From a virus, in the IMG/VR virus record IMGVR_UViG_3300032240_002475, positions 1-64,000 of that record: a stretch of 64,000 nucleotides of DNA, one strand, 5' to 3'. Under the pieces are notes generated by a model. It had not been told where the DNA came from. It was given only the letters and a program-made list of their open reading frames with translations, and made no database searches. Positions 10,617 through 41,697 of this stretch are shown in pieces. How positions within the stretch are numbered: position 1 is the stretch's first letter; every line of letters begins with the position of its first letter. The position numbers were made by a program, and so were the translations under genes.

Positions 10617-11792
10617 ATGATACAACCACAATATAGTCCACAAGAGGCTTTGGATAGAATTAAATTAATGATGAAGTATGATACTTCAAAAACACTAAAT
10701 GAAAATGTACAAGTAATTTCAGAACAAGCAACACTAACTAGTACGGCTGGTTCAACAGCAATAGGTGCTGGTTTAGGTGCAGGAACTGGTATTGCTATGG
10801 GTGCAGGAGCTTTAGGTGGGTTAGGAACTACAGCAGGTGGTGCGGCCCTTGGACTTGGTACAACATTAGCACCATCATTAGGTGCAGCGGGTGCAACTGC
10901 ATTAGGTGCATCGGTTATTGGAGGTGCTGCGGCTTTAGCAATAGTCCCTTTAGTAATGTGGTATATGGATAAAGATAATGCAAAACCAAAAGTTGCAAGA
11001 ATCATACAATATTGTACAAGTGATGCCACTAAAATTGCAAAAATTAAAAGAGGAAATTCTGAAGCAGAAATTAGAAATTTATCTGACCAACTTTATGACG
11101 CAATGAACGGACTTGGAACCGATGAAGAAAAAGTTTATGGAGCATTCAAGTCGCTCAAAACGGCTTCTGACTTTTGTGCACTTGTGAATAGATTCAATAA
11201 AGATTACGGTAGTCAAGGAGATTTATTAGAATGGTTAGATGGTGATTTTGATGCGAGTGATGAGTGGGAACAAATCTTTAGACCAATTAGAGATGTTGTA
11301 GAAGATACATTGTTGAACATAAAAGATGAGACTCCTGTTGTTGATGCTAACAGACAATCAAAAATTAACTTATTATATTGTTCTGTAAAGAACGGTGTAA
11401 TTGATAATGTACTTAGTGAGTTCAACGGTGAAAAATGGGAGGAATTTGTAACTAAAAACGCAATAACACCTGCAGAAATAGAAACAGCTAAGAAGAGTTG
11501 TACTGGTGGTAAAAAAACTGACGATGGAGGTGGAGGTAGTGGATATAAATCTTGTACAGGAACATATCAATTTGGATGTAAATCTGATGTAATCGCTAAA
11601 GTACAAAAATGTATTGGAGTAGGCGCTGATGGTAAATTTGGACCAAAAACAAGAGCAGCTTTAAATGGTAAAGGAATCACAACATTTACTGATGCTGACG
11701 TAGATAAAATCTGTCAAACAGTAGCAGTAAACAACGATGAGTTCCAAAAACAAGTAGAACCTGATAATGTTGATGATGTATTAAATTCGTAA
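10617..11792 (+). CDS. Internal virion protein candidate: glycine zipper, annexin-like and peptidoglycan-binding segments
   Basis: 391 residues in four parts. Residues 1-38 are an amphipathic helix ending NVQVISEQ, a likely prohead-protease site. Residues 45-118 are Gly/Ala-rich and hydrophobic (repeats such as GAGLGAGTGIAMGAG), a glycine-zipper membrane-inserting stretch. Residues about 145-205 read like an annexin repeat (LYDAMNGLGTDEEKVYGAFK, then LLEWLDGDFD). Residues 325-350 (CIGVGADGKFGPKTRAALNG) match the PG_binding_1 pattern. The arrangement suggests a protein packed in the head and injected to cross the membrane and bind the wall; that is inference. Confidence 0.65.
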   Translation: MIQPQYSPQEALDRIKLMMKYDTSKTLNENVQVISEQATLTSTAGSTAIGAGLGAGTGIAMGAGALGGLGTTAGGAALGLGTTLAPSLGAAGATALGASVIGGAAALAIVPLVMWYMDKDNAKPKVARIIQYCTSDATKIAKIKRGNSEAEIRNLSDQLYDAMNGLGTDEEKVYGAFKSLKTASDFCALVNRFNKDYGSQGDLLEWLDGDFDASDEWEQIFRPIRDVVEDTLLNIKDETPVVDANRQSKINLLYCSVKNGVIDNVLSEFNGEKWEEFVTKNAITPAEIETAKKSCTGGKKTDDGGGGSGYKSCTGTYQFGCKSDVIAKVQKCIGVGADGKFGPKTRAALNGKGITTFTDADVDKICQTVAVNNDEFQKQVEPDNVDDVLNS

Positions 11793-13599: not shown

Positions 13600-13630
13600 A
13601 AAAAGAAGGGTATTAACCCTTCTTTTTTGT
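13600..13630. terminator. Bidirectional hairpin at clpP end
   Basis: AAGAAGGGT-ATTA-ACCCTTCTT with A and T tracts on either side; it overlaps the clpP stop and could end transcripts from both directions. Confidence 0.6.
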
Positions 13631-14290
13631 TTTAATAATCTCATCAATAATTCCGTAATCTAAAGCTTCTTGACTGTCCAACCATAAGTCTCTTGAAGCA
13701 TCCATTTTAACTTGTTCTGCGGATTTACCACAATATTCACCTAAAAGGTCAAATAATGTGTCATTAATTTTTTCCCACTCTTTAAATGTAACTCGGGCAT
13801 CTTGGATATTTCCACCAGCTCCACCTGAAGATTGGTGTAACATTGTTCTTGAAAACTTTAATGAACTTCTTTTACCTTTAGTTCCTGCACCCAATAATAC
13901 AGAGCCCATAGATGCTGCCATACCTGTATTTACTGTTCTAATATCACATGAAATATAATTCATAACATCAACCATAGATAATCCTGATTTGACGCTTCCG
14001 CCAGGAGAGTCAATATGCATTGTAATGTCCCCTTTATCGTTATTATCCAAGAACATTAATTGTGCTTGAACAATGGTAGACATACGGTCCTCAACAACAC
14101 CTGCGACCCATAAAATCCTATCTCTCATCAAACGTGAAAAGATGTCAATTTGAGTAGCCCTCATCTCTCTTTCTTCGAGAATGTATGGAGTCATTGAAGA
14201 CTCAATTTGATTTGAAAAATTGTGAAGGTCTAATGAACCTTTACCTAAATGTTTAACGTAGTAGTTTTGAAAATCTTGTCCTATAGTCAT
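13613..14290 (-). CDS. clpP: ClpP serine protease
   Basis: 225 residues from the ATG at 14290 (the upstream extension is rejected because a promoter box lies at 14309-14316). The ClpP core is intact: ILWVAGVVEDRM, DITMHIDSPGGSV near 88, catalytic Ser near 127 in GMAASMG, His near 152 in MLHQSSGG, and Asp near 201 in SRDLWLDSQEAL. It forms the proteolytic barrel and needs an AAA+ partner; a ClpC-like ATPase is encoded at 39127-41142. Host takeover or prohead and tail quality control are possible roles. Confidence 0.93.
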   Translation of the reverse strand: MTIGQDFQNYYVKHLGKGSLDLHNFSNQIESSMTPYILEEREMRATQIDIFSRLMRDRILWVAGVVEDRMSTIVQAQLMFLDNNDKGDITMHIDSPGGSVKSGLSMVDVMNYISCDIRTVNTGMAASMGSVLLGAGTKGKRSSLKFSRTMLHQSSGGAGGNIQDARVTFKEWEKINDTLFDLLGEYCGKSAEQVKMDASRDLWLDSQEALDYGIIDEIIKTKKKG

Positions 14291-14327: not shown

Positions 14328-14969
14328 TTAAAGACCCAAAATATCGTCAATAATTTCTTGGCTTGATAAAGTTTTCCAACATCTTGGATGTTGATATGAC
14401 CAAAAAGTTTTCCAATTACCGTACCAAATAACCCCTTCTTTTCTTGGGTCAATAGTTTTGAAATCAGTACTTTGTTTTGGGAATCTACCTATATTATAGG
14501 TCTTGTAATAGTCTATATTTTCAACGTTATAGTAATCTGAATATTCTTTATTAATCTCGTCAAATTCGGTATGAATTAATGGTTTACATCCGTGGATTTT
14601 CTTATATTCCATAACCCTATCAATCCATAATAAACACTCATCTTTATCCATAGTGTCTAAATTAAATTTAACTATTTTTCCATAATCATTATATCTATGA
14701 GAGTATATTTTTTTTATTCCATAGTTTGGAACATACTTTGATATTGAAATTTCAAAGTCTCCGTAAAATTCAATTGGAACTCCAAACCAATTTCTCCATC
14801 CATTATCAGTTGGGGAAATTTTATATCCATCAATAGTTAATGACCTGTCATCACCATTTGGATATTCTCTCATTTCAACATAGTAAAGATTATCAGGTCC
14901 TACAATTTTAACGTATGGGAATGGATTAAAATGTAATATACATTTTTCTTCGTTAAGTGAAAAATACAT
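14328..14969 (-). CDS. Hypothetical protein downstream of carbamoyltransferases, 213 aa
   Basis: ATG at 14969 overlaps the carbamoyltransferase stop by 17 bp, so translation is probably coupled. Rich in Tyr, Trp and Asp; begins MYFSLNEEKCILHFNPFPYVKIVG and contains NGWRNWFGVPIEFYGDFEISI. Not recognised. The position suggests it supports the carbamoyl-transfer pathway, but no catalytic motif was seen. Confidence 0.6.
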   Translation of the reverse strand: MYFSLNEEKCILHFNPFPYVKIVGPDNLYYVEMREYPNGDDRSLTIDGYKISPTDNGWRNWFGVPIEFYGDFEISISKYVPNYGIKKIYSHRYNDYGKIVKFNLDTMDKDECLLWIDRVMEYKKIHGCKPLIHTEFDEINKEYSDYYNVENIDYYKTYNIGRFPKQSTDFKTIDPRKEGVIWYGNWKTFWSYQHPRCWKTLSSQEIIDDILGL

Positions 14970-16542
14970 AATTTTCAACAATTAATTTATCAATAATTTT
15001 ATTTTCTAACATATGAAAAGCTTCCGTTGGGTTTTCAATTATAGGTGTATTATGAGGGTTGAATGAAGTATTCAATAAAACAGGAATCCCTGAGAGTTGA
15101 TAGTATTCATTTAGAATTTCCCAAAATTTTGGTAGTTTTGATTTAACAACAGTTTGAGGTCTTGCGGTTTTATCTGATTTTTGAATAACTGCAGGAATTT
15201 TTTCAATCCACTCTTCTTTTGTGTTATAACATAAAGTCATAAATTCTGAAGTGTACTTTGATTTTGAATAAGTAAAAATATTATCAAAATGTTCGTCCAT
15301 AACAATTGGTGCGAATGGCATTGTATCATATCTATTTAATCTTTTATTTAAAATTTTGTGTGTACCAATCTCAGTTGGTCTTACTAATATACTTCTAGCA
15401 CCTAACGACCTAGGACCAAATTCTGACCCTCCTTGGAACCACCCAACAATTGCACCATCATTTATTTCTTTGGCGATTTCTTTTGGGTTATAGTCCGTTT
15501 TTTTAAAATTGAATTTTTTAGATATTTCTAATATTTCGTTTTCAGTATATGAAATTCCAAAGAAAACATCATTTAACTTAAATGGTTTTGATAATTCACC
15601 TAACTCAACTGATTTATGAATACACGCACCTAATGATAAACCTTCATCTCCCATTGCAGGATAAATATAAATCTCATCAACCCATTCCAATTCATTAATT
15701 TTTTGATTCATTTTTACGTTTGCAAATAATCCTCCAGCAAAACATAGTTTTCTATAATCAGGATATAAATTGTGAATATCATCTAAGAATTTTAAAAATA
15801 AATCTTCAGTTAATTTTTGAAGATTAAATGAAAATACTTCTCTTTGTTTTTGAGTGTTAAGAAGACCTTCTGATTTCATCATATCAACTACAAATTGGGT
15901 TTTGCTATATGTTGATGATGGATAAAATCTAAAACTATCATAATTTATACATGTTTTTAACATATTATAAATTTTTTCATCATAATATCCGTCAGGAGCC
16001 ATTCCCATTAGTTTCCCTTCATCTTTACACATTTTCCAAATTCCTTCACCCCATTCATTATACCCCATAATGCTTGATGTACTAAATCCCCATAAATGTG
16101 ATAAACTGCCAAACGATGCGATTGGTTCACTCTTGATTAATGTCATATTTCCATCTTCACACAAATACATTTTCATGACTGTGGATTCACCACCACCATC
16201 ATATGTAAGTGTTATTATCTTTCCTTCAAACCCACTTGTAAAATAAGCACCATACGCGTGTGCAGTATGATGACTAATTTTTTCATATCTATTGTTTGTG
16301 ATTTTTCTTGCAAATGCGTCAGGTGTTGGGTCAACAAAGACATTATAATCTGCATCTGTAATATTAACACCTGTAAATTTTTGAACAGCTTCGGATGCCA
16401 GTTCAACATTAATATCATAGTTGTCTCCAGCCTTAATTCTTGTCATTCTTTCTTCTTCTAAACAAGAAACAATTTTCCCATCTTTCATTAAGGCAATTGT
16501 CGGACTATGCGAACCTGTAAAAAATCCGTAAATTAAACTCAT
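14953..16542 (-). CDS. NodU/TobZ-type O-carbamoyltransferase, copy A
   Basis: 529 residues with both domains of the family. The N-terminal Kae1/HSP70-like part starts IYGFFTGSHSPTIALMKDGKIVSCLEEERMTR and holds the metal-binding SHHTAHAYGAYFTSGF near 92. The C-terminal YrdC-like part holds VGWFQGGSEFGPRSLGARSI near 375 and GIPVLLNTSFN near 490. The enzyme makes carbamoyl-adenylate from carbamoyl phosphate and ATP and transfers the carbamoyl group to a hydroxyl. In phages it may decorate hydroxymethylated bases or a surface sugar. Overlaps copy B by 4 bp. Confidence 0.9.
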   Translation of the reverse strand: MSLIYGFFTGSHSPTIALMKDGKIVSCLEEERMTRIKAGDNYDINVELASEAVQKFTGVNITDADYNVFVDPTPDAFARKITNNRYEKISHHTAHAYGAYFTSGFEGKIITLTYDGGGESTVMKMYLCEDGNMTLIKSEPIASFGSLSHLWGFSTSSIMGYNEWGEGIWKMCKDEGKLMGMAPDGYYDEKIYNMLKTCINYDSFRFYPSSTYSKTQFVVDMMKSEGLLNTQKQREVFSFNLQKLTEDLFLKFLDDIHNLYPDYRKLCFAGGLFANVKMNQKINELEWVDEIYIYPAMGDEGLSLGACIHKSVELGELSKPFKLNDVFFGISYTENEILEISKKFNFKKTDYNPKEIAKEINDGAIVGWFQGGSEFGPRSLGARSILVRPTEIGTHKILNKRLNRYDTMPFAPIVMDEHFDNIFTYSKSKYTSEFMTLCYNTKEEWIEKIPAVIQKSDKTARPQTVVKSKLPKFWEILNEYYQLSGIPVLLNTSFNPHNTPIIENPTEAFHMLENKIIDKLIVENYVFFT

Positions 16543-18212
16543 AAATTTTTTCTTATGATAAAATTATTGATTACTAAAATATCAAGATTTCTTTCTATAA
16601 ATGTTTTTATTGCATCTTCTGGTGATTCAACCATTGGTTCCTTTGGACCATTAAAACTTGTGTTTAATAATACAGGAACATTTGTTTGGTTGTAAAAACT
16701 TTCAATTAGTTGATAAAACTTTGGATTGTTTTCTTTTGTGACAGATTGATGTCTTGCTGAATTATCTATATGTGTAACTGCAGGTATTTTACTTCTCCAT
16801 TCTTCTTTAACTGTTGTAGTAACTAACATATACGGAGAGTATACGTCTGATTCAAAAACTTTATTTTGATGTTCAAATAAAACTGCTGGCGCAAATGGTC
16901 TATACCATTCTCTACCTTTGATGTCTGAATTTATATGACCTGTCATCCAAGAGTTAATTGGAGATGCAATAATAGAACGATTACCTAAAGCTCTTGGACC
17001 AATTTCAGAACCTCCTTGAAACCATCCAATAACTCTATTTTGTCTCAACCAATGTGTAGTATCAGCAATTAATGTATCAAAATTTTCATATTCAGTATGA
17101 AGTAATTCTGGATACTTATTTAAACTTTCAATAATTTCTGATTTGGAATATGTTTTTCCAATATAAGGATTTAATGGTTCTGTAGATTCAATGTCTACAA
17201 GTTTTTGTTGAGCGTACCAAGCACATCCTAATGGTATTCCACTATCATCACTTGGTGGAATAAAATAACAATTCTCATATAATCCTGAATTTAAGATTTT
17301 TTCGTTTGAATTGCAATTTAAAAATGAACCGCCAGCAACACAAACATTTTTTGAGTTTGTTTTATTTTTAGCAATTTTGGCTAAAATAAGAGATGCTCTT
17401 TCTTGTTCTCTTTGATAAATTCCCGCAACACAAGCTCTTGAAAAGAAATCAGACTTCCAAGATACTCTTGGGTATATTGGATTGTTTGGTATGAATATAT
17501 CATCCCCTAAATCTTTAATAAATTCAGGTGCCTCATCAACAATTTTATCATCAGCATAAGACGCTAACCCCATTAATTTACCTGCTGGCCAAGTATGTTC
17601 ATTTGGTTCGTAAATTAATTGTAAAGAACCTTGAGAATATACTGTACCTACTGATACATCTTCTCCTGTATCAATCGGCACAGGATATTTTATCCATTTT
17701 TTATAAACTTCATTATATTTTTCTTTGGTAAAATAATAAATTGAAATTCCTTCTGTCCAATCTTCATCAGGATTTAATCCCGTTCTATCAACATCATACC
17801 ACTTGGTCAATTTATTTTTATAATTCAAAATACTACCTGAAGCATCTGCAACAATTACTGCGGCATTATCGAATCCTGAACTAAAAAATGTTGAATATGC
17901 GTGAGCCAAATGATGAGGAATAAAAAATAATATCTCTCTTTTTAAATCATTATATTTTTTAAAAAATTGTTGTCCAACATTATCTTCGATTTCTGTCGTA
18001 CTATAAACATAATAATCAATATCTCTATGTGTTATGTTTAATGCATTTAAACAATAAGTTATTGATTCAAAAGGTATGAGACCTCCCTGCCAAGCTCCAT
18101 CATGTTTAAGACGAGAAAGTCTTTCTTGAGTAATACCCACAGCAACTTTTCCGTTCTCAATAATTACGGCACCTTTATCGTGTCCTACTGAAAATCCTAA
18201 TACTCTCATCAA
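16539..18212 (-). CDS. NodU/TobZ-type O-carbamoyltransferase, copy B
   Basis: 557 residues, with the same two-domain plan as copy A but clearly diverged. It has VLGFSVGHDKGAVIIENGKV at the start, FIPHHLAHAYSTFFSSGF near 97, VCVAGGSFLNCNSN near 290 and VIGWFQGGSEIGPRALGNRS near 395. The stop overlaps the start of copy A (ATGA), which indicates a bicistronic unit. Retention of all motifs in both copies suggests two substrates or a hetero-oligomer rather than a redundant duplicate. Confidence 0.9.
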   Translation of the reverse strand: MMRVLGFSVGHDKGAVIIENGKVAVGITQERLSRLKHDGAWQGGLIPFESITYCLNALNITHRDIDYYVYSTTEIEDNVGQQFFKKYNDLKREILFFIPHHLAHAYSTFFSSGFDNAAVIVADASGSILNYKNKLTKWYDVDRTGLNPDEDWTEGISIYYFTKEKYNEVYKKWIKYPVPIDTGEDVSVGTVYSQGSLQLIYEPNEHTWPAGKLMGLASYADDKIVDEAPEFIKDLGDDIFIPNNPIYPRVSWKSDFFSRACVAGIYQREQERASLILAKIAKNKTNSKNVCVAGGSFLNCNSNEKILNSGLYENCYFIPPSDDSGIPLGCAWYAQQKLVDIESTEPLNPYIGKTYSKSEIIESLNKYPELLHTEYENFDTLIADTTHWLRQNRVIGWFQGGSEIGPRALGNRSIIASPINSWMTGHINSDIKGREWYRPFAPAVLFEHQNKVFESDVYSPYMLVTTTVKEEWRSKIPAVTHIDNSARHQSVTKENNPKFYQLIESFYNQTNVPVLLNTSFNGPKEPMVESPEDAIKTFIERNLDILVINNFIIRKNL

Positions 18213-31408: not shown

Positions 31409-31790
31409 AAGGACTAATATATGAAGGGATTTCAATGTCTTTCAATCCCCCATCTCTTTGTAAGTTTATTCCAATTGCTCTTGGTAATTCAGGATTTTCA
31501 GGGTCAACGTCATTCAAGATTACTCTTGTACCTCTTCCCATTTCCATAATTAATTGGCTATATCTAACACCAATGGTGTCAAGCTCCTGTTTAGTAAATA
31601 GTCTATAACTTTCAGGACGAGCAGTTGTTATAACAACAACTGAACCATTGTCATGATGACTATTCACATAATCCACAACATCTTGAATTGGGGTTAATAC
31701 TGATTCAGATAATTCACTGAATTTACGATACTTTACAAGTGTACCATCTATGTCCACGAATAATGTGGGGTTTTTGATTACTTTATTCAT
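31395..31790 (-). CDS. HAD-superfamily phosphatase, 131 aa
   Basis: Start placed at MNKVIKNPTLFVDIDGTLV. Motif I DIDGTLV (nucleophile Asp near 13), motif II VVVITTARPE near 56, and a C-terminal ILNDVDPENPELPRAIGINL with acidic residues of motif IV. A small capless HAD; probably dephosphorylates a small molecule or nucleic-acid end. Overlaps neighbours on both sides, in an operon with PspC and DUF2061 genes. Confidence 0.8.
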   Translation of the reverse strand: MNKVIKNPTLFVDIDGTLVKYRKFSELSESVLTPIQDVVDYVNSHHDNGSVVVITTARPESYRLFTKQELDTIGVRYSQLIMEMGRGTRVILNDVDPENPELPRAIGINLQRDGGLKDIEIPSYISPYESI

Positions 31791-31972
31791 ATTTTTGGTT
31801 GTTTTGGAATTACTATCCAAAACAAAAGATAAGTTAAAATACTGGGAAATGGACTAAAAATTCCGACAAGAAATAATAATCTAAAAATAGATTCATCAAC
31901 GTTAAAATATTCACCTAAACCGCCACAAACGCCTGCAATTTCGGAATTTCTATGTCTGTAAAGTTTTTTCAT
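31787..31972 (-). CDS. PspC-domain membrane protein, 61 aa
   Basis: KKLYRHRNSEIAGVCGGLGEYFNVDESIFRLLFLV is the complete PspC signature (IAGVCGGLAEYF pattern), followed by one membrane helix. Bacterial PspC proteins sense envelope stress; in a phage it could damp or mimic the host phage-shock response. First gene of the operon, 4-bp overlap with the HAD gene. Confidence 0.9.
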   Translation of the reverse strand: MKKLYRHRNSEIAGVCGGLGEYFNVDESIFRLLFLVGIFSPFPSILTYLLFWIVIPKQPKI

Positions 31973-36058: not shown

Positions 36059-36097
36059 AATTAAAATAAAAAAAAAGTTCACATTACTATGAACCTA

Positions 36098-36495
36098 TGG
36101 TGGAGGTGGCGAGAATCGAACTCGCGTCTTACAATATTAACATAAACAGACTACACGTTTAGTACAACATCGGTTCTCAATGTTACGAAATATCAGGTTT
36201 GATGTGTGTGAGAACCCTACCTGCAAACAACTTGGTCTCAGAGTTATTTTAAACGAGCTCTGACCTGTGACCCGTATAGCGGACTTCTGTTCCTAGGTTA
36301 TATGTCCTAACCGACCCGAACGTTGTTCTCTACTATTAAGCAGCAACAACAGACGCTTCTCTAGTTAAACCTAAAGCAGCCATCTTAGCAAAAGTATTGC
36401 CATTTGAATTTTTTCACCGTGGATTTAAGTCATAGATGAATTCTGACTACGTGCCTGCGTACCCTAAGTATCGCAATCAATACCTGGACACCCCC
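36098..36495 (-). ncRNA. ssrA: tmRNA (ssrA)
   Basis: 398-nt RNA. The ends form an acceptor GGGGGTG/CACCTCC with discriminator A and encoded CCA, and the 3' side has a T-arm ACGCGAG-TTCGATT-CTCGC. Inside, a short frame runs from a GGC resume codon (36401-36399) to TAA TAG (36338), giving a 21-residue tag that starts GNTFAKMAA and ends SVVAA. Ala-Ala ends mark proteins for Clp proteases. A host-type TATCTTTG box lies 21 nt upstream. It rescues stalled ribosomes; no SmpB was seen in this window. Confidence 0.93.
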
Positions 36496-36515: not shown

Positions 36516-36523
36516 CAAAGATA
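36516..36523 (-). promoter_or_regulatory. Bacteroidetes-type -7 box TATCTTTG before tmRNA
   Basis: TATCTTTG on the - strand, 20 nt before the mature tmRNA 5' end. Confidence 0.6.
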
Positions 36524-36555
36524 AGAATAAATACTGTAAAACCAAACTGAAATCA

Positions 36556-36569: not shown

Positions 36570-37610
36570 ATGGCATCATACGATACTTTTATGGCTTTGA
36601 AGGGTTACGTTAAAGGTAACACTTCTAGATATGAATTGGAAGATTCTGACCCAGACATTTATCACGTTAGAGAAGATAGGTCTAACCTTGGACAGAGTGT
36701 TATTAAATTAGGCTTCAATGATGATAAATTTTGGAAAAATGTGGGTTTACATGAAGACGATGTTTGGTTTATGAAGATAATTAATTCACCTTATTCAGAT
36801 TATGAATTCATGGATACGTATAGTGTTAAGGACGATTTTAGTCTCGGGTATACTATTTTTTATGAATTGAATGAAGATAATATTGAAAAACTAAAATTAA
36901 TATCACGATACATTTTTCCAAAAAAATTTGATTTAGAAAATGAAGAGTTCAGGTCAGAATTCGCACAAAAATTATTGTCCTCATTTAAACGTGAAACAGA
37001 AGATATTCTTGACGATTATCAGTCTGAAAAAAATAGAGAAATGTCAAATGTTGCTCAAAAATCAATTCAGAAAGAATTAAATGACTATTTTAATGATTTT
37101 GGATTTACCTATATACCCGATGACGAGTTTACTACAACTGTTGCAAATCTTATGATGTGGTATATCAGGGAAAACGCAGTACATGAACCCATTTCAAAAT
37201 TACTACCTAAAATTTTTAGTTCTAGCAGGATTTCAATAGGAGGATGGCAAGAAAATAGTTATGAATATCAGGATTCAAAAGAATTTGATAGTATATCATT
37301 TAACAATTATGTTGAGCGTAAATTAGATGAAATAATTGAAAAGATTGAAGATGGATATGACGGAGATTTCAAGATTCAAGATTATCTTGATATGGTAGAA
37401 AGAGTTAGTAAAAAGTTTGAAGTTGGTGAATGGCATAACTTACCAAAAAAGAAAGATGTTAGATTTTATATTGAAAATTTTGAAATGAATCCAAATAAAG
37501 TTGTTGTTAAACTTTCCAAAGCGTTCAAACAAAGAAGTTTAAAATTATCTGAGGAGAATTTTTATCATCTACTTTATCAGCCTACATTATTTAATTTGGA
37601 AGAAATCTAA
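36570..37610 (+). CDS. Hypothetical protein, 346 aa
   Basis: Begins MASYDTFMALKGYVKGNTSRYE. Acidic and mostly helical, with an ILDDYQSEKNREMSNVAQKS stretch that may be coiled coil. Preceded by a late-type box. Not recognised; no catalytic motif. Confidence 0.6.
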   Translation: MASYDTFMALKGYVKGNTSRYELEDSDPDIYHVREDRSNLGQSVIKLGFNDDKFWKNVGLHEDDVWFMKIINSPYSDYEFMDTYSVKDDFSLGYTIFYELNEDNIEKLKLISRYIFPKKFDLENEEFRSEFAQKLLSSFKRETEDILDDYQSEKNREMSNVAQKSIQKELNDYFNDFGFTYIPDDEFTTTVANLMMWYIRENAVHEPISKLLPKIFSSSRISIGGWQENSYEYQDSKEFDSISFNNYVERKLDEIIEKIEDGYDGDFKIQDYLDMVERVSKKFEVGEWHNLPKKKDVRFYIENFEMNPNKVVVKLSKAFKQRSLKLSEENFYHLLYQPTLFNLEEI

Positions 37611-37618
37611 ATTTTTAC

Positions 37619-37626
37619 TATATTTG
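37619..37626 (+). promoter_or_regulatory. Bacteroidetes-type -7 box TATATTTG
   Basis: TATATTTG 4 nt before the ATG of the M20-like peptidase. Confidence 0.5.
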
Positions 37627-37630
37627 TGGT

Positions 37631-38473
37631 ATGACACAAAATATATCCCTGCTAAAACAAGTTCTTAGCATCCCTAGTAAAACATATAAGGAAGATTTAA
37701 TGGTTGAATTCTTGGTTAAATGGTTGACCGAGAACGGTATTGAACATTATGTTGATGAACATAAAAATGTTTATGCAACCAAACAACAAAGCCCTCTTAT
37801 TTCCGAAGATTTTTATTTTCCATTAGTAATTGCACATACAGATACTGTACATGAGATTGAAGGTATTTTTATTGAGGAGGAACAATTACCAAATGCTCAA
37901 GGGGAAATAAAAGACGCTTTGAAAGCCTACAACGCCATTGGAAAACCAACAGGTATTGGTGGAGATGATAAATGCGGTGTTTTTGCTTGTTTAACACTAC
38001 TTCAAGAATTACCATATTTGAAGGCTGCATTCTTTGTTTCTGAAGAAACGGGATGTCATGGTTCAAGAAAGGCTGATGAAAGATTTTTCAAAAACGTTGG
38101 ATACGGAATTCAGTTTGACGCGCCTGAAAACTGGATGATTACAGAAAAATGTTTTGGTCAAGTTTTGTTTGACCGAGAAAGTGAATTCTTTGAAAAAGTC
38201 GACCAAGTATTAACCGAAGGTATGGTTAATGAAGATATGAAATATATGGTTCATCCATACACTGATGTTTATGCTTTAAGAAATAAATTTGATTTTTCTT
38301 GTATTAATTTTTCAATTGGATATTATGACTATCATACCAAGAATGAATATGTTGTTATTGAAGACGTATTTAATGGGATTGGAATGGGTAGAAAAATGAT
38401 TAGTGAATTAGGATATAAATTACATTTTAAGAAATCTGTGCCGTATGACCCAATGAGCAGGTTTATTATATAA
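37631..38473 (+). CDS. M20-family-like metallopeptidase
   Basis: 280 residues. Zinc-binding blocks of the M20/PepT clan are present: VIAHTDTVH near 82, IGGDDKCGVFA near 116, VSEETGCHGS near 137 and YDYHTKNEYVV near 238. The protein is shorter than bacterial PepT (about 400), and the usual dimerisation domain appears to be reduced or absent. It could process peptides or amidated metabolites; the substrate is unknown. Own promoter and terminator. Confidence 0.8.
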   Translation: MTQNISLLKQVLSIPSKTYKEDLMVEFLVKWLTENGIEHYVDEHKNVYATKQQSPLISEDFYFPLVIAHTDTVHEIEGIFIEEEQLPNAQGEIKDALKAYNAIGKPTGIGGDDKCGVFACLTLLQELPYLKAAFFVSEETGCHGSRKADERFFKNVGYGIQFDAPENWMITEKCFGQVLFDRESEFFEKVDQVLTEGMVNEDMKYMVHPYTDVYALRNKFDFSCINFSIGYYDYHTKNEYVVIEDVFNGIGMGRKMISELGYKLHFKKSVPYDPMSRFII

Positions 38474-38484
38474 AACATTTAACC

Positions 38485-38529
38485 ATCGGGTGGTCTTGAA
38501 TATTGATAAATTCACCACCCGATTTTTTT
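38485..38529 (+). terminator. Intrinsic terminator
   Basis: ATCGGGTGGT ... ACCACCCGAT 10-bp stem with a T run, after the peptidase. Confidence 0.85.
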
Positions 38530-38544
38530 ATCTACATATGAACA

Positions 38545-39081
38545 CTATTCGTTAGGTTTCCAATCAACAATTAAATGAATTCTGTCTTTATCACCATGAT
38601 TAAAAACACCATGGAGTTTTTCAGAATTATTAATTTCCCAAATTTCACCAACTTTTAAAATTTTACTTTCATCTTCAATTGTAAAAAAACAATTATTATT
38701 TGTTATAATTGGTATATGAATCCTTTTTGAAAAATTTAACGAATCTCCCATATCTAAATGAGGAGGAATTTCACCACCTTTAACTAACATAACCAAAAGG
38801 GCTCTAAAAATTTTGCCATTCAAACCAATAGATTTATTTAAAGTTTCTTGTAAAGAATCTATTTGTTCTTTAAATAAAGTATAATTAGATGTTGGAATTG
38901 CATCAAACGATTTGAAATTTGCGTTAAATAATATTGGGATTGTTTTGGTTTTTCTATGAACAGGAAATGCTTTTTGTCTGTAATCAAATTCATCCCAATC
39001 AAGATTTGAGTCATTTAAAACATTTAAAAAATTTGATGTGTCAAAATTGCCATAATATTTAAATCTGAAATCTTTTTCCAT
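38545..39081 (-). CDS. Aspartyl/asparaginyl beta-hydroxylase-like 2OG oxygenase
   Basis: 178 residues. GGEIPPHLDMGDSLNFSKRIHIPII near 105-130 holds the H-x-D iron ligands, KLHGVFNHGDKDRIHLIVDW near 157-175 the distal His and the 2OG-binding Arg, as in the Asp_Arg_Hydrox fold. Fifth 2OG-type oxygenase of the window. It stands alone between two terminators. Confidence 0.8.
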   Translation of the reverse strand: MEKDFRFKYYGNFDTSNFLNVLNDSNLDWDEFDYRQKAFPVHRKTKTIPILFNANFKSFDAIPTSNYTLFKEQIDSLQETLNKSIGLNGKIFRALLVMLVKGGEIPPHLDMGDSLNFSKRIHIPIITNNNCFFTIEDESKILKVGEIWEINNSEKLHGVFNHGDKDRIHLIVDWKPNE

Positions 39082-39126: not shown

Positions 39127-41142
39127 TTATCTACTCTTTTTTTCGATTTTGACTAAGTCATCTTCTACTTTTAATTTGTAGGATTTACCCTCAAGCAATT
39201 TACCTGTAAGAACCTCTTCAGATAATAAGTCTTCAATCTTATCTTGGATTGCTCTTTTTAATGGACGAGCTCCATATAATTCATCAAAACCTATTTTAGC
39301 CAAATAATCTACAAGTGTTTCGTCATAGGTAAGTTTGTATTTCATTTCATCTAAACGAGAAACTAATTTTTTAAGTTCAATCTCAGTGATTTTCTTAATG
39401 TCTTCAGGACTTAATGAATTGAATACAATAGTATCATCAATACGATTTAAGAACTCAGGAGAGAAAAAATTCTTCATCTCTTTCATTAATACTTGTTTCT
39501 TAGCTTCTTCATTGCTGTAAGTACTAGTACCAAATCCAATACCTGTACCAAAGTCTTGTAACTTTTTAACACCCAAGTTTGATGTTAAAATAATCAAGGT
39601 ATTCTTGAAGTTAATCTTACGACCAAGACTATCTGTTACGTGACCATCATCTAATATTTGAAGTAAAATTGTGAACACATCTTTGTGTGCTTTTTCAACC
39701 TCATCAAATAAGATTACTGAGTATGGTTTATTCTTAACCTTCTCGGTTAATAATCCACCTTCTTCATATCCAACGTAACCTGGAGGAGCTCCCACTAATT
39801 TAGATACTGTGTGTTTCTCTTGGTATTCAGACATATCCACACGGATAAGTGAATCTTCAGAGCCAAACATTTCTTTTGCTAATTGTTTGGCCAAGTAAGT
39901 TTTACCAACACCTGTTGAGCCTAAGAACACGAATGAACCAATTGGACGGTTAGGGTCTTTAATACCTAAACGGTTTCTTTTAATAGATTTTGCAATCTTA
40001 ATAACCGCAGCATCTTGACCAATAACTTTACCCATTAACTCTTTATCCAAGTTTAATAATGTTGATTTATCATCAACACTCATTTTATTAACAGGAATTT
40101 TGGTCATATTAGAAACAACGTCATAAACATCTTCAGGGGAAATCATTTGTTTATCTTTTTCCATTTGTTCTTCAAACTTACGTTTTTCAGAGTCTAATTT
40201 ATCCAATAACTTTTTTTCCTTATCTCTAAGTTGAGCTGCTTGTTCATAATTTTGTTTTTTAACAACATCAACTTTCTGTTGACGAATTTCCGCGGCCTTT
40301 CTTTTTAATTCTTCAATTGATTCAGGAACTTTAAGTTCTGTTTGCATACGAGCTCCAACTTCATCTAAGATGTCAAATGCTTTATCAGGAAACTCGCGGT
40401 CAGTAATATAACGGTCAGCTAACTTAACACAAGTTTCAATAATTTCATCACTATACGTAACCTTATGATAAGACTCATACTTATCACGTACGTTCTTTAA
40501 AATTTGAATTGTCTCAACAACTGAAGACGGTTCAACAATTACCTTTTGGAATCTACGTTCTAATGCTCCATCCTTCTCAATGTTCTTACGGAATTCATCC
40601 AAAGTGGTTGCACCAATTACTTGAATTTCACCACGAGATAAAGCTGGTTTGAAAATGTTTGAACCATCCATTGAACCTGATGAATTACCTGAACCTACAA
40701 GAGTATGGATTTCATCAATGAATACGATGATATTAGGGTTAGCTTGAAGCTCCTCAATAATCACCTTCATCCTTTCTTCAAATTGACCACGGTATTTTGT
40801 ACCAGCAACCACAGAAGTTAAATCAAGGTTTACAATTCTTTTATCCACCAAATTTCTTGGACAATCACCGCTAATAATTTTCATAGCTAAACCTTCTACG
40901 ATTGCAGTCTTACCACAACCAGGTTCACCTAAGATAATAGGGTTATTTTTTTTTCTACGAGATATGATTTGAGCAATTCTCAAAATTTCTCTATCTCTAC
41001 CAATTACAGGGTCTAACTTACCAGCCTCAGCTAATTTGTTTAAATCTCTACTGAAATTGTCTAATACAGGTGTACTACTGTCTGATGATTGTTTTTGTTT
41101 CTTACTCATCATTTTGTCGTCGTCGTCCATTAAATCGTTCAT
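39127..41142 (-). CDS. ClpC-like AAA+ unfoldase lacking the N-domain
   Basis: 671 residues from MNDLMDDDDK. D1 has Walker A GEPGCGKTA at about 72 and Walker B FIDEIHTL; a short M-domain has a UVR-like helix pair (KKQNYEQAAQLRDKEKKL); D2 has GSTGVGKTY and LFDEVEKAH; an IGF-type loop (GTGIGFGTS) lies near 535, the ClpP-docking element. The usual N-terminal adaptor domain (about 150 residues) is missing and replaced by a short acidic tail. With phage ClpP it could make a full protease. Confidence 0.92.
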   Translation of the reverse strand: MNDLMDDDDKMMSKKQKQSSDSSTPVLDNFSRDLNKLAEAGKLDPVIGRDREILRIAQIISRRKKNNPIILGEPGCGKTAIVEGLAMKIISGDCPRNLVDKRIVNLDLTSVVAGTKYRGQFEERMKVIIEELQANPNIIVFIDEIHTLVGSGNSSGSMDGSNIFKPALSRGEIQVIGATTLDEFRKNIEKDGALERRFQKVIVEPSSVVETIQILKNVRDKYESYHKVTYSDEIIETCVKLADRYITDREFPDKAFDILDEVGARMQTELKVPESIEELKRKAAEIRQQKVDVVKKQNYEQAAQLRDKEKKLLDKLDSEKRKFEEQMEKDKQMISPEDVYDVVSNMTKIPVNKMSVDDKSTLLNLDKELMGKVIGQDAAVIKIAKSIKRNRLGIKDPNRPIGSFVFLGSTGVGKTYLAKQLAKEMFGSEDSLIRVDMSEYQEKHTVSKLVGAPPGYVGYEEGGLLTEKVKNKPYSVILFDEVEKAHKDVFTILLQILDDGHVTDSLGRKINFKNTLIILTSNLGVKKLQDFGTGIGFGTSTYSNEEAKKQVLMKEMKNFFSPEFLNRIDDTIVFNSLSPEDIKKITEIELKKLVSRLDEMKYKLTYDETLVDYLAKIGFDELYGARPLKRAIQDKIEDLLSEEVLTGKLLEGKSYKLKVEDDLVKIEKKSR

Positions 41143-41310: not shown

Positions 41311-41697
41311 ATGTTTGGAAACAGAAGAAATTACAATGACGTGTTCAGATTATTTGATGAAATGTTTGAACAATTTAATTTAAACAATGGTGGGTGGAAG
41401 ACTCAAACCAGAATGTCCGAAGACGGAACAACAAAAGTAACAACTCATTATTGGAGTAACGATACAACAAATCCAAAATCAAATGGAGGTGTTGAAAGTT
41501 TGAAATCTCAACTTGAATATGCAATTGAAAACGAAGATTTTGAGTTGGCGGTTAAACTTAGAGACCAAATTAAAAGTTTGGAATCAAACCAAGAAGAAAT
41601 CGATAAACTTGAATTGGAATTGAAAAAATCAATCAAGGAACAAAACTTTGAAAAGTCTATTGAGATTAGAGACCAATTGAAAAAATTGAAACAGTAA
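41311..41697 (+). CDS. UVR-motif protein, candidate Clp adaptor
   Basis: 128 residues. Two UVR motifs in the C-terminal half: LKSQLEYAIENEDFELAVKLRDQI near 68-91 and LELELKKSIKEQNFEKSIEIRDQL near 100-123. UVR pairs occur in UvrB/UvrC and in McsA, the ClpC adaptor. This gene is divergently transcribed next to the phage ClpC-like gene, whose M-domain also carries a UVR-like motif, so a role as an adaptor is attractive. The N-terminus (FRLFDEMFEQFN) lacks the McsA zinc fingers. Confidence 0.75.
   Translation: MFGNRRNYNDVFRLFDEMFEQFNLNNGGWKTQTRMSEDGTTKVTTHYWSNDTTNPKSNGGVESLKSQLEYAIENEDFELAVKLRDQIKSLESNQEEIDKLELELKKSIKEQNFEKSIEIRDQLKKLKQ

What the first reader, a model, noticed from the sequence alone, without database searches (positions are those of the whole stretch)
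36098..36495. Phage-encoded tmRNA with a 21-residue, VVAA-ended tag
A complete tmRNA is encoded on the - strand with its own host-type promoter. The tag frame (36401 to 36338) starts at GGC, is longer than the 10-11 residues of E. coli, and ends SVVAA rather than YALAA. Because Clp adaptors and unfoldases read the last residues, the change could steer tagged proteins to the phage's own Clp enzyme. This is seen in sequence for the RNA; the redirection idea is inference.
Basis: partly seen in the sequence, partly recalled or inferred. Interest (0 to 1): 0.8.

Follow-up and report, generated by a model that had tools for sequence, protein, structure and literature searches.

The report
Phage tmRNA with its own tag
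This Bacteroidota phage carries a complete tmRNA (the RNA that frees stuck ribosomes) whose 21-residue tag differs from its hosts' tags, is kept across dozens of related phages, and sits beside the phage's own protein-unfolding and protein-cutting genes nearly wherever the sequence reaches far enough, so the virus may run a private protein-disposal line.

Summary
Window 36098-36495 (-) is a complete one-piece tmRNA (Rfam 95.7 bits, E 4.8e-36; ARAGORN misses it). The tag is GNTFAKMAALGLTREASVVAA followed by three stops. The gene has a Bacteroidota-type promoter and a terminator. Relatives gave 70 distinct tmRNAs with 48 different tags of 21-22 residues. All keep G3-U70, the helices covary, and the tag frame shows purifying selection (pN/pS 0.55; other frames 0.82 and 0.91). 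Bacteroidota hosts encode short tags ending LAA (GENNYALAA and similar). Endings in this phage family vary: only 12 of 70 end VAA, and the conserved part is the first 12 residues.

The phage also encodes an N-domain-less ClpC with the ClpP-docking IGF loop, 2.6 kb from the tmRNA, and a cellular-type ClpP. In 25 long records found by the tag alone, ClpC is present in 23 and ClpP in 19; nearly every absence is a contig end. Two related records add SmpB. Phage tmRNAs are already known. What appears new is the proprietary tag family linked to a phage ClpC/ClpP pair. That ClpCP degrades the tagged proteins is inference (about 50%). Huge phages with a similar ClpC showed no such tag nearby.

The parts
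36098..36495 (-). one-piece tmRNA (ssrA) gene, 398 nt, CCA encoded
   Evidence: Rfam RF00023, 95.7 bits, E 4.8e-36
36339..36401 (-). tag reading frame GNTFAKMAALGLTREASVVAA, resume codon GGC; stops TAA TAG TAG follow from 36338
   Evidence: translation; 48 homologous tags in 70 distinct tmRNAs, pN/pS 0.55 against 0.82 and 0.91 in the other frames
36489..36495 (-). 5' strand of the acceptor stem (GGGGGTG), with G3
   Evidence: G3-U70 in 33/33 aligned and 70/70 relatives; pairs 4-7 compensate
36102..36108 (-). 3' strand of the acceptor stem (CACCTCC), with U70
   Evidence: as above
36109..36125 (-). T-arm GCGAG-TTCGATT-CTCGC
   Evidence: 100% paired, all 5 pairs with changes on both sides
36413..36448 (-). 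pseudoknot PK1 upstream of the tag (AGTCA/TGACT and TTCATC/GGTGAA)
   Evidence: pairing in the window; covariation in both stems
36359..36376 (-). hairpin CTTTAG/CTAGAG inside the tag frame (P5-like)
   Evidence: 73% of cells paired, only 2 of 6 pairs change on both sides
36281..36312 (-). pseudoknot PK2 (GGTT/AACC and GGAC/GTCC)
   Evidence: second stem 100% paired with changes on both sides in 4/4 pairs
36225..36265 (-). pseudoknot PK3 (GGTCAGAG/CTCTGAGACC and AAATAA/TTGTTT)
   Evidence: pairing in the window; 67-77% of cells paired, 5/8 pairs covary in the first stem
36167..36216 (-). pseudoknot PK4 (GGTTCTCA/TGAGAACC and ACATC/GATGT)
   Evidence: pairing in the window; 62-78% of cells paired across all sub-groups
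36516..36546 (-). Bacteroidota-type promoter TTTG-N19-TATCTTTG
   Evidence: conserved upstream of 51-55 of 70 relatives, far above shuffles
36068..36097 (-). intrinsic terminator (GTTCA...TGAAC then T9)
   Evidence: sequence; T5 within 40 nt downstream in 55 of 69 relatives
39127..41142 (-). ClpC-like double-AAA unfoldase, about 671 aa, no N-terminal Clp domain, D2 loop DFGTGIGFG (IGF), pore loops KYRG and GYVG
   Evidence: Pfam, motif survey, nearest solved structure ClpC, tree
13613..14290 (-). cellular-type ClpP with Ser-His-Asp triad
   Evidence: PF00574 E 3.2e-58, best NCBIfam ClpP PRK14514, PDB ClpP matches
41311..41697 (+). small protein with two UVR motifs, weakly McsA-like, divergent from clpC; possible adaptor (inference)
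   Evidence: Pfam UVR, 2 stretches; NCBIfam McsA below cut-off; next to clpC in 47 of 73 loci

Best explanation
The locus encodes a working tmRNA of a T4-type phage of Bacteroidota. Transcribed from a host-type promoter, it is charged with alanine, enters stalled ribosomes (normally with host SmpB) and adds a 21-residue tag that belongs to the phage lineage and not to the host. Tagged fragments are most likely unfolded by the phage's own ClpC, which lacks the adaptor-binding N-domain and would have to take the tag directly or through a phage adaptor, and cut by the phage's own ClpP. Purpose: keep ribosomes free when host and phage mRNAs are being fragmented, and clear or recycle the truncated proteins without relying on host proteases. 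Shown in sequence: RNA, frame, purifying selection, promoter, ClpC/ClpP and their linkage. Inferred: activity, alanine charging, and recognition of the tag by ClpCP.
For: Complete tmRNA with intact alanine identity and covarying helices. Tag frame under protein-level selection, strongest in residues 1-12 (pN/pS 0.39), length fixed at 21-22. Bacteroidota cellular tags are short and end LAA; other one-piece phage tags in the sample mostly end LAA. 68 of 80 ClpC loci carry the long tag on the same strand, 4.3-6.4 kb from the ClpC start; the other 12 loci are short fragments. In 25 records found by tag alone, ClpC is present in 23 and ClpP in 19. Both ClpC absences and 5 of 6 ClpP absences lie beyond a record end, and in the sixth (G072) the record ends within the range of usual distances. 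Three more long-tag phages, picked as controls before their tags were read, also carry the short ClpC and ClpP. All phage ClpCs inspected have the ClpP loop. Two relatives encode SmpB, one 140 nt from the tmRNA.
Against: No binding or degradation data. All family members may share one ancestor, so linkage is not many independent events. The C-terminus, which ClpX/ClpA read in E. coli, is the variable part here. Huge phages LR745206 and LR756502 have a similar N-domain-less ClpC and ClpP without this tag nearby, and no tmRNA was found in LR745206, so this ClpC/ClpP kind has uses without the tag. Phages with full-length ClpA plus ClpP keep a host-like ALAA tag.
Confidence: 0.5

Rival explanations
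1. Ribosome rescue is the benefit; the tag is still degraded by host ClpXP or ClpCP, and its phage-specific sequence is drift of a hydrophobic Ala-ended degron. Phage ClpC/ClpP serve other roles, such as chaperoning or removal of host proteins.
For: Most tags still end in a small residue, chiefly Ala; E. coli ClpXP accepts LVA, AAV and SVA variants of its own tag (PMC9382460); ClpC/ClpP occur in huge phages without the tag; most of these phages lack SmpB and must use the host's.
Against: The tag is long, of fixed length and most conserved in its first half, which a C-terminal ClpX degron does not need; endings such as VTI, VKA, VEA and VTVS depart from LAA; near-complete linkage with ClpC and ClpP.
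Confidence: 0.3
2. The tag is a stealth or localisation tag: it spares tagged phage fragments from host proteolysis or routes them elsewhere, or the RNA mainly competes with host tmRNA for SmpB.
For: Tag differs from the host LAA tags; a phage RNA made of little more than the tRNA-like domain (DS6A) is discussed as an inhibitor of tmRNA (PMC4131195).
Against: The full mRNA-like domain and tag frame are kept under selection, which a mere SmpB sponge does not need; linkage to ClpC/ClpP is unexplained.
Confidence: 0.12
3. The apparent tag conservation is RNA-structure conservation, and the frame is incidental.
For: The tag overlaps a hairpin and a partial helix.
Against: Synonymous change clearly exceeds replacement change in the tag frame (0.466 against 0.258), far less so in the other two frames (pN/pS 0.82 and 0.91); all 70 frames end in a stop after 21-22 codons; the in-tag hairpin is only 73% paired.
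Confidence: 0.04

Closest known systems
Bacterial one-piece tmRNA (Rfam RF00023), Bacteroidota type
   Same: Acceptor stem with G3-U70, T-arm, P2, pseudoknots, resume codon GGC as in GENNYALAA-type tags, host-type promoter.
   Different: Tag of 21-22 residues instead of 9-11, no LAA end, frame runs on past the P5-like hairpin.
Other phage-encoded tmRNAs (mycobacteriophages, Bacillus phage G, Melnitz, huge phages; PMC4131195, PMC9004378, PMC7162821)
   Same: tmRNA in a phage genome; huge phages are also reported with SmpB.
   Different: A distinct tag family; sampled one-piece phage tags mostly end LAA; no such tag-plus-ClpC/ClpP linkage was found in the papers searched.
Mollicute tag/Lon pair (Mesoplasma florum ssrA; PMC9382460)
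   Same: A long divergent tag that went with a change of degrading protease.
   Different: There it is a cellular tag read by Lon; here a phage tag and, by inference, a phage ClpCP.
Chryseobacterium phage MA9V-3 (PMC13120357)
   Same: Bacteroidota phage annotated with an SsrA RNA and a Clp unfoldase.
   Different: Authors list ClpX, not ClpC; tag not reported in the passages read.

Membership tests
tmRNA (RF00023) | Covariance-model match over the full length | tested here: met
   1-374/374, 95.7 bits
tmRNA (RF00023) | tRNA-like domain with G3-U70 (alanine identity) and T-arm | tested here: met
   33/33 G-U; T-stem fully covarying
tmRNA (RF00023) | Internal tag frame ending in a stop | tested here: met
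   21 codons then TAA TAG TAG, conserved
tmRNA (RF00023) | Four pseudoknots | tested here: inconclusive
   four can be drawn; covariation clear for PK1 and PK2, partial for PK3 and PK4
tmRNA (RF00023) | SmpB binding, alanylation, tagging activity | not testable with these tools
   needs experiment; no SmpB gene in this record
Host-type (LAA-ended) ssrA tag | 8-11 residue tag ending LAA | tested here: not met
   21 residues, VVAA; sampled Bacteroidota tags are 9-11 residues and end LAA
ClpC unfoldase | two AAA domains with ClpP-docking loop (I/L/V)GF | tested here: met
   IGF in the window and in all relatives inspected
ClpC unfoldase | N-terminal Clp_N domain for adaptors | tested here: not met
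   about 671 aa against 842-879 aa in Bacteroidota; no Clp_N match
Cellular-type ClpP protease | ClpP family match and Ser-His-Asp triad, not head-maturation type | tested here: met
   best family PRK14514, 234.5 bits (below its equivalog cut-off of 361), against 84 bits for the best prohead model; residues S128 H152 D201

The most novel reading that the evidence does not exclude
A phage lineage encodes a self-contained, host-orthogonal protein-disposal pathway: its own tmRNA with a proprietary degron, a ClpC stripped of its adaptor domain that reads this degron directly, its own ClpP, and in some members its own SmpB.
Probability: 0.4. Interest if true: 0.85.

Novelty: new variant of a known kind. 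Interest (0 to 1): 0.66.

Why it matters
Why phages carry tmRNA is an open question. Here the tag has diverged from the host's, is kept under selection, and travels with phage ClpC and ClpP, which makes a concrete and cheap test possible: which protease degrades the tag. If phage ClpCP does so selectively, phages have evolved an orthogonal degradation channel, and a new orthogonal degron/protease pair becomes available for laboratory use. It also shows that a standard tool (ARAGORN) missed this tmRNA, so phage tmRNAs may be under-counted.

Tried and rejected
DNA search of the tmRNA region and tblastn of the tag in 50,697 phage records: no relative. Exact tag-core pattern in 84,980 bacterial and archaeal genomes: none, so no cellular or prophage source was found, though a looser tag could be missed. 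MCP relatives as an unbiased frame for co-occurrence: mostly short fragments, not usable. First impression that 8 of 46 related records lack a tmRNA was wrong: five hold the gene with an odd T-loop or an intron and another is cut by its contig end; G022 has the tag elsewhere (L147); only G041 remains without one. Idea that any phage Clp pair goes with a novel tag rejected: phages with full-length ClpA and ClpP keep ANENSYFEEFALAA. No structure predictions were run, since only single chains can be folded and the question is a complex.

Full report
What is there. The finding's region was checked with Rfam: RF00023 matches 36098-36495 (-) end to end at 95.7 bits, E 4.8e-36, and it is the only match over the cut-off in the 122,290-base virus record. 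ARAGORN misses it. The RNA begins GGGGGTG and ends CACCTCC-ACCA with G3-U70, the alanine identity pair (established knowledge). The tag resumes at GGC 36401, aligned by the model to the normal resume position, and reads GNTFAKMAALGLTREASVVAA, then TAA TAG TAG. Upstream is TTTG-N19-TATCTTTG, the Bacteroidota promoter form, and downstream a hairpin with T9.

Relatives. The adjacent gene, the Clp gene, a tmRNA 3'-end pattern and the tag itself were used as four separate probes of IMG/VR. Rfam finds tmRNA over the cut-off in 38 of 46 related records. Inspection of the rest found five more genes that the model missed and one cut by a contig end; one further record has the tag elsewhere. Collected, they give 70 distinct tmRNAs with 48 different tags: 64 of 21 and 6 of 22 residues, resume codon GGC in 67, all ended by a stop. 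Loci found by tag pattern are biased to the GNTFAK form; those found by gene neighbours are not, and include GNVLNKMALLGLVKQDELVEVA and GNVLDKLSAVGFIRTEEVAVA.

Selection. In 52 distinct 21-codon frames pN/pS is 0.55 overall, 0.39 for residues 1-12 and 0.76 for 13-21; the other two frames of the same bases give 0.82 and 0.91. So the peptide, chiefly its first 12 residues, is under selection. The endings vary: VAA 12, TVA 11, VGA 9, VVA 8, VTI 8, AVA 6, VEA 5, VTA 4 and others.

RNA structure. On 33 sequences a hand-drawn structure with pseudoknots has 81.7% of cells paired and 317 cells with changes on both sides, against 115 in shuffles and at most 91 in slid controls. G3-U70 never varies while pairs 4-7 of the same stem compensate; the T-stem and the second stem of PK2 are fully paired and covary. 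The structure was derived from the window sequence, so the percentage paired is somewhat favoured; the compensatory changes are the safer measure. PK3 and PK4 differ between sub-groups and are less sure.

Host. The nearest cellular ClpCs are Flavobacteriia and other Bacteroidota (57-61% identity), the ClpP matches the PRK14514 model best, and the promoter is of Bacteroidota type. Seventeen Bacteroidota genomes gave cellular tmRNAs; tags read there are GENNYALAA, GEDNYALAA, GETNYALAA, DNNNSYALAA, DNTSYRLAA and the like, all LAA-ended. Terminase, portal and capsid proteins are T4-like; the nearest isolates by terminase include Flavobacterium phage immuto, at 25% identity.

Protease partners. ClpC at 39127-41142 lacks the Clp_N domain; phage ClpCs of this clade are about 670 aa against 842-879 aa in hosts, all inspected carry IGF at the ClpP loop, with pore loops KYRG and GYVG. 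They form one separate branch apart from host ClpCs. ClpP at 13613-14290 is of cellular type. In 80 ClpC loci, 68 carry the long tag on the same strand, 4.3-6.4 kb from the ClpC start; the other 12 are fragments of 13.6 kb or less. In 25 records of 62-321 kb found by tag alone, ClpC is in 23 and ClpP in 19. Tag-to-ClpP distance is about 15-27 kb, and with tag positions both ClpC absences and five of six ClpP absences lie beyond the record end; the sixth (G072) has 17 kb left, within the range. Among 25 other tmRNA-bearing phage records of 90 kb or more, the only three with the short ClpC (G086, G090, G099) turned out to carry this tag family too. SmpB is in 2 of 43 records, once 140 nt from the tmRNA.

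Limits. The linkage may reflect one ancestral gene block. Huge phages LR745206 and LR756502 have N-domain-less ClpC and ClpP without this tag nearby, so that pair works for something else as well. Two phage records with full-length ClpA and ClpP keep an ALAA tag. Whether tagged proteins go to phage ClpCP, to host ClpXP or are left alone cannot be decided from sequence.

Known and new. Phage tmRNAs are known: 402 of 18,146 genomes in one survey (PMC9004378), and tmRNA with SmpB is reported in huge phages (PMC7162821). Long tags are not unique either: Mollicute tags are long and read by Lon (PMC9382460), and other phages here have tags of about 20-30 residues, such as ANNIVRFEDFTACGEELALAA. New, as far as the library searched shows, is a proprietary tag family fixed in length, distinct from the hosts' tags and linked to a phage ClpC/ClpP pair. 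Hence 'new variant of a known kind'.

Noticed in passing
L263:12871-13087 and the same gene in L264 (IMG/VR records of 68,565 and 97,694 bp): The phage tmRNA gene is interrupted in its T-loop by a group I intron (RF00028, 72.5 bits, about 217 nt in L263); such introns are described in cellular tmRNA genes of Bacteroidia (PMC11915505). It hid the gene from the Rfam tmRNA model.
   Followed up: partly
L126, L127 and L131 (tag at 11207 and 8594 of the reverse strand in L126 and L131): Otherwise normal long-tag tmRNAs whose T-loop reads GGCGGAA or GGCAGAG instead of TTCRANN; Rfam scores them below threshold. Unexplained.
   Followed up: no
L351:961-1360 and SmpB at about L351:1487-1921: A related phage carries its own SmpB 140 nt downstream of the tmRNA.
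   Followed up: partly
window 36570-39081: Between tmRNA and clpC lie a 346-aa unknown protein, an M20-like peptidase and an Asp/Asn beta-hydroxylase; the M20 gene is in 77 of 80 related loci, the unknown one in 74.
   Followed up: partly
window 14953-18212: Two tandem Nol-like carbamoyltransferases next to clpP.
   Followed up: no
window 2131-27451: Seventeen tRNA genes, 15 of them clustered at 20.5-27.5 kb.
   Followed up: no
window 31787-31972: A 61-aa PspC-domain protein in a phage.
   Followed up: no
L529:1501-1612 (LR756508.1, 484 kb huge phage): A second tmRNA-like RNA of only about 112 nt, apparently little more than the tRNA-like domain (58.2 bits); the same record holds a 447-nt tmRNA with a long frame GVNNADYESAGFTAEDFAQMDGESLYHGSERKPAAV.
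   Followed up: no
L535 and L536 (records of 92,840 and 221,342 bp): Another phage lineage with a two-piece tmRNA, full-length ClpA and ClpP but a host-like tag ANENSYFEEFALAA.
   Followed up: partly
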